The notes: generated by a model not told the origin, from the sequence alone. A stretch of DNA of 58,578 nucleotides from an uncultured Gammaproteobacteria bacterium (GCA_947258755.1 CAMYJO010000027.1:1-58578); one strand, 5' to 3'. Shown: positions 37,237 to 41,550, counted from the first letter of the stretch. Numbers and translations: made by a program.

Positions 37237-37971
37237 ATGAACAAGGCAATGTTAACTACCCTGGTATTGCTACTGTGCCTGCCGCTATCGCCTGCACTGC
37301 ATGCTGAAAATGTAGCCAGTTATAAAGACCTCCGTGACCAGATGTTGAACAAGGGGGCCGATAACAAACAAAAGAAGTCCAAATTCAGCCCGGATGAACT
37401 TAAGCTAATGAAGGATTCGCTGGCGCAGGTGAAACAGGGGCATCCGTCCCCGGGACTAAAGGTGGGTCAGAAGGCGCCGGACTTTAGCTTGACCAATGCC
37501 TTCGGTAAAACTGTAAGCCTGTCGGCACAATTAAAAAACGGCCCGGTTATTCTGGTGTTTTATCGCGGTGCGTGGTGTCCTTTCTGTAACCTGCACCTGC
37601 ATGTGTTACAGAAGAATATCGATAACTTCAAAAAACATGGAGCGACCCTGATCGCGATCACGCCGCAACAACCAGATCAATCTGCGAAACAATTAAAGAA
37701 AAAAGGTTACCCGTTCGAGGTCTTGAGTGATCTCGATGACAGTGTCATGCAGCACTATGGTCTGTATTACAAATTATCTGATGAGCTCGTCAGTCTGTAT
37801 AAACGTAAAGGGCTCGACGTCGAGCAATACAATGGCAAGGGCAGGGTGGCGTTACCGATCCCCGGTACCTTCGTTATCGGTCAGGACGGCATCATCAAGG
37901 CGGCGCATGCCGATCATGACTACAAAGAACGCATGGAACCGACGCAGATTATCCAGGCCTTGCAGCAATAA
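37237..37971 (+). CDS. Exported AhpC/TSA-type peroxiredoxin
   Basis: A 244-residue thioredoxin-fold protein of the AhpC/TSA superfamily with a signal peptide (about 1-23, ending LHA). The active-site region is FYRGAWCPFCNLH, with Cys114 and Cys117 forming a CxxC pair that is more typical of a peroxiredoxin-like or thioredoxin reductase-dependent subgroup than of classical 2-Cys enzymes. It should act in the periplasm on peroxides. The ribosome-binding site ACAGGAG is close. Its last 23 bp overlap the end of the convergent rhombosortase gene. Confidence 0.88.
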   Translation: MNKAMLTTLVLLLCLPLSPALHAENVASYKDLRDQMLNKGADNKQKKSKFSPDELKLMKDSLAQVKQGHPSPGLKVGQKAPDFSLTNAFGKTVSLSAQLKNGPVILVFYRGAWCPFCNLHLHVLQKNIDNFKKHGATLIAITPQQPDQSAKQLKKKGYPFEVLSDLDDSVMQHYGLYYKLSDELVSLYKRKGLDVEQYNGKGRVALPIPGTFVIGQDGIIKAAHADHDYKERMEPTQIIQALQQ

Positions 37972-38575
37972 GCCCTGACAGCTTGTTGCGTTGATAGCGT
38001 GACCTGATCATCACGATGGCTAGTCCGATGGCCATGCCTACGATGTGCGCCTCTGGCACGCTGGGCCATGTGGTATGCGTAAAGATCGCTTCTTGTGTGA
38101 ATAGTTCCATTAAGTTTTTAATCAAGGCAAGCGCGAGTATCAGCAGGATCGAGGGTGCGCGATAGTGTTGCCACAAGGCAGCAATACCGGTGACCAGAAG
38201 GGTATTCAGTATTCCCGATAGTCCACAATAGGCACTCAGGTCCGGCATGAAATATATCAACCAAAATGACATCAATACGCAAGCCAGTAACAGGTCGGTA
38301 AACAGGCGTGTCTTCAGTTGTTGTTCAAACAGGCTGCCGAGTACGATCAGGGCGCTGATGTTCCAGACGGCATGTTCAAGATCGCTATGCATCCAGTGCC
38401 CGCTGATCAACGTCCACAGTTCGCCTTGACTGATGGCCGCGCGGCTAAAGACCCAGAGTTCGGGTGCCGGGCCGGCGATATAGTAGCCAAGTATGGCCAG
38501 CAGCCCGAGGATAAAAGAACGCCATGGCAGACGAAGTCTGCCATGGCGTGGGTTACTGCCCTGTTCAAGCGGCAT
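37949..38575 (-). CDS. rrtA: Rhombosortase (rhomboid-family GlyGly-CTERM protease)
   Basis: A 208-residue intramembrane serine protease of the rhombosortase subgroup (TIGR03902). It has about six membrane segments. Motifs are HWMHSDLEHAVWN (60-72), the nucleophile GLSG with Ser120 (118-121) and the catalytic His177 in EAHIVG. Rhombosortases cut proteins with a C-terminal GlyGly-CTERM signal, releasing or anchoring them. The VIT/VWA gene just upstream ends in such a signal, and the two genes overlap by 11 nt (its ATG lies inside the last codons of the VIT/VWA gene). It is the clear dedicated processing enzyme. Confidence 0.93.
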   Translation of the reverse strand: MPLEQGSNPRHGRLRLPWRSFILGLLAILGYYIAGPAPELWVFSRAAISQGELWTLISGHWMHSDLEHAVWNISALIVLGSLFEQQLKTRLFTDLLLACVLMSFWLIYFMPDLSAYCGLSGILNTLLVTGIAALWQHYRAPSILLILALALIKNLMELFTQEAIFTHTTWPSVPEAHIVGMAIGLAIVMIRSRYQRNKLSGLIAARPG

Positions 38576-40742
38576 TTTTTCTACCCCGACGGGTGGTCAG
38601 CATGACCGAGGCTGCCAACAGGCCGAACAATGCCAGCGTCCACGGATCGATAGCACCACCGCCACCACCAAAGCTTGGGCGTGGGGATTTGTACATGGGT
38701 TGCTGGGTATCCACACGACGGCTGGGAGCCGGGCGGGCCTGGCGTTGCTGTTGTGCCGCCTGTTCAACCGCCAGGCGTTTCTTGTTACTGCGTTCGATCT
38801 TACGCGATGCAAATACCTCATCACGCATCACCACCATCGAGGTATAGTCGGTGACCAGACCATATTCAGTACCCAGGCCGACGATCGCCTGTTTGATATC
38901 CGCCTTTTCACCGAAGTTATTGATTTCTTCCATCATGTCTTCGATGCTGGCATAGGCCCACAGGCGTTCAATTTCCGGGTTCTCATTGGTCGTTGCCGGA
39001 AAATTAAAACGGGTCTGATAGGACTTGTCCTGACCGGATATTTTACCATCGATCTTCACGGTAGCTTGACCATCACCCCAGTAGTGACCAAACACTACTA
39101 GTTGTTGACCACGATACAGGCTGCCGATTTTCTGTGGTGTGATATCGGCAGTTTTAACGCCGCTGATATCGACCTTGACGCCATGCAGGGCCTCATGTGT
39201 GACCTTACTACTGGCCTTCAGGATCTGACCGACAATGTCATCACTATTGGATATGCTGATGGCAAAACCATTGGACTCGCGTGTCATCGCTTCAAGCATC
39301 GGACGGTTACTGCTGTTACCCATGATCATGGTAAACAGGCGAATATCTTTTTGCTTGATCAACTCGATGAATTTGCGCTGATGGGTTTCACCGACATTGG
39401 CAACGCCGTCAGTCACCAGTACGATGGCACTGGTACGGTCAGCATCAATTTGCTGCAGACCATTAAACAGGCCCTGGTACAAATTGGTACCGCTGTTGGG
39501 CTGAATTGCCGCGACCTTATCGCTGTAGTGTTTGATCATATCCGGTGTGGCATTGATATAACCGGGAGTCAGATCGCTGGCACGATTATTAAACAGTACG
39601 ATACGGAAACGGTCGTCGGCGCGCATCTTTTTCATGGTGCGTTGTACGCCATCGGCCAAGGTTGCAAACTTCCTCTGCATGGAACCGGAGATGTCCAGTA
39701 CAAAGATATAGTCCTTGCCCTTATTGATTGGCTTCAGGTCTGCACCGGGTGTGACCACCATCATGAAGGTACCGCGTTTACTGGCATCCGGTTTATACGT
39801 CACCAGGTCAACGCTACCCGGCAGGCCGGGCTTGTGACGCCAATACACCACCAGATCCTTATCCAGTGTATAAACGGCATTGCCCTGCTGAGGATTGAAG
39901 TTCACCGCAGGTGCTGGACTGCCGCCCTCTAATGGATGTGCGGTATTAACCGTATTCAGGCTGGCAGGCATTGCAGTCGCGACAACATCGTCCGATGGAT
40001 TGGCTTGCGCCTTACTCGTCGGTGTAGTTTGGCTGGCCTGTTGACCGATGTGCACATTCCATTCACCGGCACTGTGTTGTTTGACAGTGGCATTACCCTG
40101 ATTGGGTACACGTACGGCATCGACCGGATAGGCGGACTTGATCTTCAGGTTAAAATTAAACTTGCTGGTGACCTTGTCATTGGCAGTCCAGAAAGCCAGT
40201 TTCTGATCGTCGACGCCACCCTCCTCAAGTGGATAGACATAACGACCTATACCAGTATCGATATGCGCCGGTTGCAGATAGACGATACGCACGCGCGTAT
40301 CTTTACCGGCACGAACCGGCGAGACCATGGCTTCAAAGGTCTTGAAACTGTCCTTCTCGGTCAGGCCCGCATCACGACCGGCCTGTTTTTCTTCCTCATA
40401 GACCTTACGCGCTTGTTGCTTTTCCAGCACCTCGCCGGTGACCGCCTTACCATCGATCCAGAGAGTCATTTCGGCGACCGAACCATGTTCGGGGACTGGA
40501 AATGAATAACGAGCCTCCAGGTCCTGTGCATGCGGGTTATGAAAGACCTGTTCAACCTGTGTGATCGCATAGCCGTCTTCGATCGTGACGGTGACCTCGT
40601 GGTCACGAATCTCTAGGGCGGGCAGGTTGCTATTGGTCGGAGTCAGCAGACCGGCTGCCATGACCGGTTGCATGCTCAACATGCACAGGGCCGTGGCCAT
40701 GTACCTGCTGATGCGGCTAATAAATGATGTTGTATTGTTCAT
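38565..40742 (-). CDS. VIT and VWA domain protein with GlyGly-CTERM anchor
   Basis: A 725-residue exported protein. A signal peptide (about 1-30, ending MAA) precedes a VIT domain (about 36-165), a Thr/Pro/Ala-rich linker (232-285) and a VWA domain with MIDAS D350-x-S352-x-S354 in VLDISGSM, then a C-terminal part to ~680. The tail has SFGGGGG (690-696), a hydrophobic segment and RRGRK, the GlyGly-CTERM tripartite signal that rhombosortase cuts. The layout matches the marine proteobacterial sortase-target family (TIGR03788), but the partner here is a rhombosortase instead of a sortase. A GGGAGAG ribosome-binding site precedes the ATG at 40742. It is divergent from a TetR gene. Confidence 0.93.
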   Translation of the reverse strand: MNNTTSFISRISRYMATALCMLSMQPVMAAGLLTPTNSNLPALEIRDHEVTVTIEDGYAITQVEQVFHNPHAQDLEARYSFPVPEHGSVAEMTLWIDGKAVTGEVLEKQQARKVYEEEKQAGRDAGLTEKDSFKTFEAMVSPVRAGKDTRVRIVYLQPAHIDTGIGRYVYPLEEGGVDDQKLAFWTANDKVTSKFNFNLKIKSAYPVDAVRVPNQGNATVKQHSAGEWNVHIGQQASQTTPTSKAQANPSDDVVATAMPASLNTVNTAHPLEGGSPAPAVNFNPQQGNAVYTLDKDLVVYWRHKPGLPGSVDLVTYKPDASKRGTFMMVVTPGADLKPINKGKDYIFVLDISGSMQRKFATLADGVQRTMKKMRADDRFRIVLFNNRASDLTPGYINATPDMIKHYSDKVAAIQPNSGTNLYQGLFNGLQQIDADRTSAIVLVTDGVANVGETHQRKFIELIKQKDIRLFTMIMGNSSNRPMLEAMTRESNGFAISISNSDDIVGQILKASSKVTHEALHGVKVDISGVKTADITPQKIGSLYRGQQLVVFGHYWGDGQATVKIDGKISGQDKSYQTRFNFPATTNENPEIERLWAYASIEDMMEEINNFGEKADIKQAIVGLGTEYGLVTDYTSMVVMRDEVFASRKIERSNKKRLAVEQAAQQQRQARPAPSRRVDTQQPMYKSPRPSFGGGGGAIDPWTLALFGLLAASVMLTTRRGRKNAA

Positions 40743-40857: not shown

Positions 40858-40870
40858 TGAACACTGTTCA
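40858..40870. promoter_or_regulatory. Operator-like palindrome 1 (probable TetR site)
   Basis: TGAACACTGTTCA is a perfect dyad with 6-bp arms around one base. It shares the TGAACA/TGTTCA half-sites with the second palindrome at 40889-40905. A weaker related sequence (AAACACCGTTCAAT) lies at 40802-40815. Confidence 0.7.
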
Positions 40871-40888
40871 GTTATTTTATAGCACACA

Positions 40889-40905
40889 ATTGAACATTGT
40901 TCAAT
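40889..40905. promoter_or_regulatory. Operator-like palindrome 2 (probable TetR site)
   Basis: ATTGAACATTGTTCAAT is a perfect 17-bp dyad with 8-bp arms, 46 bp before the tetR ATG. It is centred 33 bp from palindrome 1, about three helical turns, so cooperative binding is plausible. The TetR product is expected to repress itself and the divergent VIT/VWA-rhombosortase operon. Confidence 0.75.
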
Positions 40906-40950: not shown

Positions 40951-41550
40951 ATGGCGCGTCGAAGTGATCATAGCAGGGATGAAATCAGGGAAATGTCCCT
41001 GCAGGCGGCAGAACAATTGATTATTGCCCAGGGCTACAAGGCCCTGAGTGCGCGCAAGGTGGCATCCGAGATCGGTTATACCGTCGGCACCCTGTACCTG
41101 GTGTTCAAAAACCAGGACGAATTCATACTCCATATAAATAGCCGCACCCTGGATGAGCTCTATCAATCTATGCAGACCGTGATTGATGATCACCAAGACG
41201 CGCATGCATGCGTGTTGGCCCTGTGCCGAAACTATTATGACTTTGCCGCCGCCAATGCCAACCGCTGGTTGTTGATCTTTGAACATGCATTACCCGAAGA
41301 CAATGGTGTGCCCGACTGGTATCAGCAACGTATCCGTGGCGGTTTCGAGATGTTGGAGAAGTTACTGCAGTCTCTGGTGGCCACACATAAGCCACAACAG
41401 ATTGGTACGGCCGCACGCGTGTTATGGGGTAGCGTACATGGCATTACCATGCTAGCCATAACCCGTAAGCTGGATGTGGTGGGTATCGAGTCGGTGTATG
41501 AGTTGATTGATTCCCTGGTTGAGAATTATCTGGCAGGGCTAACACGATAA
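40951..41550 (+). CDS. TetR-family transcriptional regulator
   Basis: A 199-residue TetR-type regulator. The N-terminal helix-turn-helix (about 10-57, with ALSARKVASEIGYTVGTLYLVFKN) is standard, and the C-terminal domain with LWGSVHGITMLAI is of the TetR_C_33-like (WHG) group. It is divergently transcribed from the VIT/VWA-rhombosortase operon, and two palindromes with TGAACA half-sites lie between the starts, so it probably controls that operon and itself. The inducing ligand is unknown. Confidence 0.92.
   Translation: MARRSDHSRDEIREMSLQAAEQLIIAQGYKALSARKVASEIGYTVGTLYLVFKNQDEFILHINSRTLDELYQSMQTVIDDHQDAHACVLALCRNYYDFAAANANRWLLIFEHALPEDNGVPDWYQQRIRGGFEMLEKLLQSLVATHKPQQIGTAARVLWGSVHGITMLAITRKLDVVGIESVYELIDSLVENYLAGLTR

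What the first reader, a model, noticed from the sequence alone, without database searches (positions are those of the whole stretch)
37949..40742. A rhombosortase overlapping its own single VIT/VWA substrate with a GlyGly-CTERM tail
Seen: the VIT/VWA protein ends in SFGGGGG, a membrane segment and RRGRK, and its stop codon lies inside the start of a gene with GLSG (Ser120) and His177, i.e. a rhombosortase. Known: the TIGR03788 VIT/VWA family is normally paired with a sortase in marine proteobacteria. Inference: here the anchoring enzyme has been swapped for a rhombosortase, and the overlapping genes form a dedicated two-component surface-display or release system. This substitution of one anchoring system for another around a conserved VIT/VWA core would be worth describing if it is common.
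Basis: partly seen in the sequence, partly recalled or inferred. Interest (0 to 1): 0.7.

Follow-up and report, generated by a model that had tools for sequence, protein, structure and literature searches.

The report
Dedicated rhombosortase with its VIT/VWA substrate
A gammaproteobacterium carries a surface-protein gene whose end overlaps the gene of the membrane enzyme that probably trims and anchors it; this kind of pair was described in 2011, but here it sits beside, not instead of, the older sortase version, and has its own repressor sites and a conserved RNA hairpin between the two genes.

Summary
The VIT/VWA protein (725 aa) ends in a Gly-rich motif, a membrane segment and basic residues, and its stop overlaps a 208-aa rhombosortase by 11 nt (TIGR03902 112.6 bits, cut-off 84; Ser120 and His177 invariant; GlpG-like fold). 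The tail itself misses the TIGR03501 cut-off, but orthologous tails pass it.

The "sortase swapped for rhombosortase" idea is not supported. The same genome holds a second VIT/VWA gene (TIGR03788, LPQTA tail) overlapping its own class GN sortase. In 369 class genomes the two systems co-occur (14 of 21) rather than replace each other. Haft & Varghese 2011 already reported GlyGly-CTERM, LPXTG and PEP-CTERM tails in this family, and adjacent rhombosortases in single-target genomes.

New here: VIT-adjacent rhombosortases form one clade; a divergent TetR gene with TGAACRNYGTTCA operators belongs to most close relatives; and a covarying RNA hairpin lies just after the VIT/VWA stop, inside the rhombosortase coding sequence, probably keeping substrate mRNA above enzyme mRNA. 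Most likely: a regulated, dedicated cassette that cleaves and lipid-anchors one VIT/VWA protein, as RssP does for VesB.

The parts
38565..40742 (-). R-type VIT/VWA protein, 725 aa: Sec-type signal peptide by eye, VIT, VWA with MIDAS, linker with QQPMY..RPS, GlyGly-type C-terminal tail
   Evidence: MIDAS D350/S352/S354/T419/D445 and tail G696 identical in all 52 R-type proteins aligned
38568..38672 (-). C-terminal sorting tail (GGGGG motif, membrane segment, RRGRK)
   Evidence: sequence; orthologous tails over TIGR03501 cut-off
37949..38575 (-). rhombosortase, 208 aa, catalytic Ser120/His177
   Evidence: TIGR03902 112.6 bits; invariant residues; rhomboid fold
38565..38575 (-). 11-nt overlap of substrate stop and enzyme start
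38519..38549 (-). 14-bp perfect RNA hairpin in the first codons of the rhombosortase, starting 16 nt after the VIT/VWA stop, followed by TCTTTTAT
   Evidence: strongest 50-nt fold of the operon and recoding test; covariation in 15 loci
40951..41550 (+). divergent TetR-family regulator (TetR_N + TetR_C_33), 199 aa
   Evidence: divergent at the same place in most close relatives
40858..40870 (.). operator-like palindrome TGAACACTGTTCA
40891..40903 (.). operator-like palindrome TGAACATTGTTCA, 33 bp from the first

Best explanation
This is a dedicated rhombosortase/GlyGly-CTERM cassette. A divergent TetR repressor binds two TGAACRNYGTTCA operators and controls a two-gene operon (inferred). The first gene makes an exported VIT/VWA adhesion-type protein whose tail parks in the inner membrane. 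The second makes a rhombosortase that cuts at the glycines and probably hands the new C-terminus to a lipid, as V. cholerae RssP does for VesB, after which a type II secretion system could carry it to the surface (inferred by homology). The hairpin just after the substrate's stop probably protects or ends the upstream mRNA, so that much substrate and little enzyme is made (inferred). It works beside a separate sortase/LPXTG VIT/VWA pair in the same cell, not in place of it.
For: Gene pair and domains. Only one rhombosortase, and no other tail over the GlyGly-CTERM cut-off, in the genome. All 21 R-type VIT/VWA genomes in the class survey hold a rhombosortase, against 104 of 348 others. VIT-adjacent rhombosortases form one clade of 25, SH-aLRT 95. 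Six of the seven genomes with only the linked enzyme have no over-cut-off tail in a long frame (G145 has one, the VIT/VWA tail itself), while several with a general enzyme have many. gspD at 596 bits in the genome. Palindromes in 25 of 26 TetR-linked loci against 1 of 29 others. Hairpin 91.9% paired, covariation above all 500 shuffles. RssP mechanism: PMC6219818, PMC13393428. Protective structures inside coding regions of operons: PMC5927463.
Against: No cleavage, lipid attachment, secretion, repressor binding or mRNA ratio has been shown for any member. TIGR03501 misses the window's own tail, so other degenerate targets in the genome could be missed too. A U-run after the hairpin is seen in only part of the loci (8 of 26 with at least 5 T in 8). 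Some relatives lack the hairpin (L158, L161, L167) or the TetR gene.
Confidence: 0.75

Rival explanations
1. One reading: the sortase of an ancestral VIT/VWA pair was replaced by a rhombosortase.
For: VIT/VWA core shared between the two types; adjacent enzyme in both.
Against: Both pairs in this genome and in G002, G350, G086 and G145. The VIT/VWA types are separate lineages. Co-occurrence odds ratio 18, p 5e-9 by genome count, not corrected for kinship. A very old exchange at the split of the two lineages cannot be excluded.
Confidence: 0.08
2. The enzyme is a general rhombosortase with further substrates elsewhere; adjacency is incidental.
For: 13 of 21 R-type genomes in the survey use a distant, general rhombosortase. 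Genomes with a general enzyme carry many GlyGly-CTERM proteins.
Against: No other over-cut-off tail in this genome. The adjacent enzymes form their own clade. G350 has both an adjacent and a general enzyme.
Confidence: 0.12
3. The rhombosortase only releases the VIT/VWA protein by cleavage (shedding), without anchoring.
For: Rhomboids normally hydrolyse. In V. cholerae part of the RssP substrates is released (PMC6219818, PMC13393428).
Against: The best-studied rhombosortase leads to a glycerophosphoethanolamine-modified, surface-held product.
Confidence: 0.2
4. The hairpin is only a by-product of the conserved peptide RHGxxxLPWR, or a DNA site.
For: The peptide motif is conserved in most of these enzymes; synonymous recoding alone gives only moderate z in some loci (L137, L149, L077).
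Against: Wobble positions of His and Pro codons match in all 15 loci (7 UA, 6 CG, 2 UG). In other branches the hairpin lies between the genes, outside coding sequence (L075, L169, L079, L080).
Confidence: 0.15

Closest known systems
Rhombosortase/GlyGly-CTERM dedicated systems (Haft & Varghese 2011, PMC3237569)
   Same: one rhombosortase next to its one GlyGly-CTERM target; VIT/VWA homologs with this tail shown in their Fig. 3C
   Different: in the sections read, that paper does not show a VIT-specific enzyme clade, the TetR/operator part, the RNA hairpin, or coexistence with a sortase pair in one genome
V. cholerae RssP-VesB (PMC6219818, PMC13393428)
   Same: rhombosortase with Ser/His dyad, GlyGly tail, T2SS present
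   Different: there one enzyme serves six GlyGly-CTERM proteins; VesB is a protease, not VIT/VWA
TIGR03784 class GN sortase with TIGR03788 target
   Same: overlapping enzyme and VIT/VWA target; present on contig C15 of this genome
   Different: cysteine transpeptidase and LPQTA tail instead of rhomboid and GlyGly tail
Intra-operon protective RNA structures (Dar & Sorek 2018, PMC5927463)
   Same: conserved RNA structure within a coding region at an operon junction
   Different: function here untested; not in Rfam

Membership tests
Rhombosortase (TIGR03902) | score over curated cut-off 84 bits | tested here: met
   112.6 bits
Rhombosortase (TIGR03902) | rhomboid fold and catalytic Ser/His | tested here: met
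   S120, H177 invariant; GlpG matches
GlyGly-CTERM (TIGR03501) | score over 15.5 bits for the window tail | tested here: not met
   not reported; G002 ortholog 13.9 bits, others 15.7-31.8 bits
GlyGly-CTERM (tripartite architecture) | Gly-rich motif, membrane helix, basic end | tested here: met
   sequence and 53 orthologous tails
TIGR03788 marine sortase target | score over 551.65 bits, LPXTG-type tail, adjacent sortase | tested here: not met
   218.5 bits; the C15 paralog meets it at 819.5 bits
Dedicated single-target rhombosortase system | one rhombosortase, one target, adjacent | tested here: inconclusive
   one enzyme, no other over-cut-off tail, but the model misses the known tail too
RssP-type surface anchoring | cleavage at Gly and glycerophosphoethanolamine attachment | not testable with these tools
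   needs mass spectrometry
RssP-type surface anchoring | type II secretion system present | tested here: met
   gspD TIGR02517 596.4 bits, cut-off 351.35; other T2SS genes not checked
TetR family | TetR_N and a TetR C-terminal domain | tested here: met
   PF00440 39.5 and PF13305 47.6 bits, both over cut-off

The most novel reading that the evidence does not exclude
A substrate-specific rhombosortase clade, inherited as a cassette with its VIT/VWA target, an own TetR/operator switch and a covarying hairpin inside the enzyme's coding sequence that sets the substrate-to-enzyme ratio, running in parallel with a sortase cassette for a paralogous VIT/VWA protein in the same cell.
Probability: 0.5. 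Interest if true: 0.55.

Novelty: new variant of a known kind. Interest (0 to 1): 0.42.

Why it matters
It gives a clean one-enzyme, one-substrate rhombosortase system, in which the enzyme's specificity and its possible transamidase activity could be tested without competing targets. Two VIT/VWA proteins in one cell with two unrelated anchoring enzymes allow a direct comparison of what each anchor is for. The hairpin and operators offer a concrete handle on how such pairs are dosed. The core pair itself is not a new kind.

Tried and rejected
Swap of sortase by rhombosortase: rejected for this genome because both pairs are present. TIGR03788 membership of the window protein: rejected by cut-off. 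Rfam search of the locus gave nothing. A regulon for the TetR protein: four other TGAACNNNGTTCA sites exist in the genome but none fits the RNY core seen at the conserved loci, so no wider regulon is claimed. With one mismatch allowed, the palindrome count in the window is not above chance (3 against 1.94 expected); the case rests on conservation across loci. Only four of 398 genomes sampled across the phylum, the own one included, matched the VIT/VWA protein at E <= 1e-60, two of them outside the class. A simple intrinsic-terminator reading of the hairpin was weakened because a T-run follows in only part of the loci.

Full report
1. The observation. The VIT/VWA ORF runs 40742 to 38565 on the minus strand (725 aa) and the second ORF 38575 to 37949 (208 aa), overlapping by 11 nt. 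The first has VIT (106.9 bits) and VWA domains. The second passes the curated rhombosortase model TIGR03902 (112.6 bits, cut-off 84). Ser120 and His177 are as stated and invariant in the aligned rhombosortases, VIT-linked and other. The AlphaFold2 model (pLDDT 91) matches GlpG structures best. The tail ...SFGGGGGAIDPWTLALFGLLAASVMLTTRRGRKNAA has the tripartite architecture, but it is not reported by TIGR03501. The same-genus ortholog scores 13.9 bits, and orthologs in eight other genomes pass the 15.5 cut-off at 15.7 to 31.8 bits. It is therefore a GlyGly-CTERM tail by homology and architecture, not by the model's own threshold.

2. The genome. G000 (3.2 Mb, 49 contigs, 100% complete) holds exactly one match of the rhombosortase model and two VIT genes. 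The second, on contig C15, is a TIGR03788 member (819.5 bits, cut-off 551.65) ending in LPQTAAGSYRDLILGMLLTLLGCLLSVYFHRKNTHAA, and a class GN sortase (223.9 bits, cut-off 158.25) overlaps its end. The window protein scores only 218.5 bits to TIGR03788. Both pairs therefore coexist. A type II secretion gspD is present (596 bits).

3. Survey. In 369 class genomes there were 92 VIT loci at useful strength: 49 next to a class GN sortase, 8 next to a rhombosortase, 35 next to neither. Reading neighbourhoods showed that 13 of the 35 are also the window's type (R-type, GlyGly tail) with the rhombosortase elsewhere in the genome, one of them (G037) broken into two frames. All 21 R-type genomes carry a rhombosortase, against 104 of 348 others, and 14 of 21 also carry a sortase-linked VIT/VWA, against 35 of 348 (odds ratio 18, p 5e-9). 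The 14 lie in 12 families, but the test does not correct for kinship. A scan of public genomes gave 38 loci of the R-type in Gammaproteobacteria, many with an overlapping rhombosortase at -1, -4 or -11 nt.

4. Trees. With the tail left out, R-type and S-type VIT/VWA separate with full SH-aLRT support. The 25 VIT-adjacent rhombosortases are one side of a branch against 32 others (SH-aLRT 95, quick tree, no bootstrap). On the VIT/VWA tree adjacency changes at least four times. This fits an ancestral cassette whose own enzyme was lost where a general rhombosortase could serve, but repeated gain is not excluded. Linked enzymes differ from general ones at several positions (N124 where others have His, W71, E84, W135, W170), candidate specificity residues. 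G350 has one enzyme of each kind.

5. Dedication. Seven genomes with only the linked enzyme show, among real long frames, a single over-cut-off GlyGly tail (G145, the VIT/VWA itself), while genomes with general enzymes show up to about a dozen, for example G133 and G062. Because the model also misses the window's tail, dedication is likely but not shown.

6. (a) A TetR-family gene (40951-41550, +) faces the operon across 208 bp. Perfect palindromes TGAACACTGTTCA (40858-40870) and TGAACATTGTTCA (40891-40903) lie between them, 33 bp apart. In related loci with the divergent TetR gene, 25 of 26 have a TGAACRNYGTTCA palindrome within 400 bp, 14 with a 33/34-bp pair, against 1 of 29 loci without it. 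In the own genome the RNY form occurs only here. (b) A 14-bp hairpin (38549-38519, minus strand) begins 16 nt after the VIT/VWA stop, inside the rhombosortase codons for RHGRLRLPWR. In 13 of 26 junctions the strongest 50-nt fold of the operon lies there, and in 22 of 26 it ranks in the top six. Synonymous recoding never reaches it in the window (0 of 1000) but often does in some relatives (217 of 1000 in L149). Over 15 loci aligned without gaps, 91.9% of cells pair, with covariation above all 500 shuffles and above all slid versions. In other branches the hairpin lies in the intergenic space instead (L075, L169, L079, L080). R-type genes without a neighbour enzyme also tend to have a strong fold after the stop (15 of 26 in the top six), so the element may be the substrate gene's own 3' end over which the enzyme gene was laid. 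No Rfam family matches.

7. Mechanism. In V. cholerae, rhombosortase RssP cuts VesB at the GlyGly motif, the new Gly end receives a glycerophosphoethanolamine-containing group, and T2SS takes it to the surface (PMC6219818); the tail and RssP suffice for membrane association, but a further secretion signal is needed to cross the outer membrane (PMC13393428). By homology the same is expected here. Conserved RNA structures inside operon coding regions that protect parts of the transcript are known in E. coli (PMC5927463). I therefore read the cassette as a TetR-controlled operon making much VIT/VWA and little enzyme. The VWA metal site is complete and invariant in 52 R-type proteins, so ligand binding is likely; the ligand is unknown. 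The best solved relatives by sequence are inter-alpha-trypsin inhibitor heavy chains and PARP4.

8. Novelty. VIT/VWA relatives with GlyGly-CTERM, LPXTG and PEP-CTERM tails, and adjacency of rhombosortase and single target, are both in Haft & Varghese 2011 (PMC3237569). In the literature searched (open-access papers only) I found no report of the linked-enzyme clade, the coexistence in one genome, the TetR operators or the hairpin.

Noticed in passing
38519-38549 (-): Conserved, covarying RNA hairpin at the substrate/enzyme gene junction, inside coding sequence.
   Followed up: yes
40858-40903 and 40951-41550: Divergent TetR-family gene with two TGAACRNYGTTCA palindromes 33 bp apart, conserved in most close relatives.
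   Followed up: yes
L034:4334-7079 (contig C15 of the same genome): Second VIT/VWA gene with LPQTA tail and overlapping class GN sortase.
   Followed up: yes
37237-37971 (+): A peroxiredoxin-like gene (by eye) whose 3' end overlaps the 3' end of the rhombosortase gene by 23 nt, tail to tail.
   Followed up: no
38660-38720 (-), residues about 675-690 of the VIT/VWA protein: The linker before the GlyGly motif carries a conserved R-x-D-x-x-Q-P-M/F-Y/F-x-x-x-R motif in R-type proteins (D678, P682 and R688 nearly invariant), unusual for a spacer; a possible secretion or enzyme recognition element.
   Followed up: partly
L044:6205-7735 (G004 contig C27): A rhombosortase placed as sister to the VIT-linked clade on a long branch, next to a 312-aa protein ending in GFSGSADALLILISIMGLVIALRAKNA; perhaps another dedicated pair with a different substrate.
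   Followed up: no
L113 (G037 contig C1) and L216/L218 (G544 contig C39): R-type VIT/VWA genes broken into two frames or carrying an internal stop.
   Followed up: no
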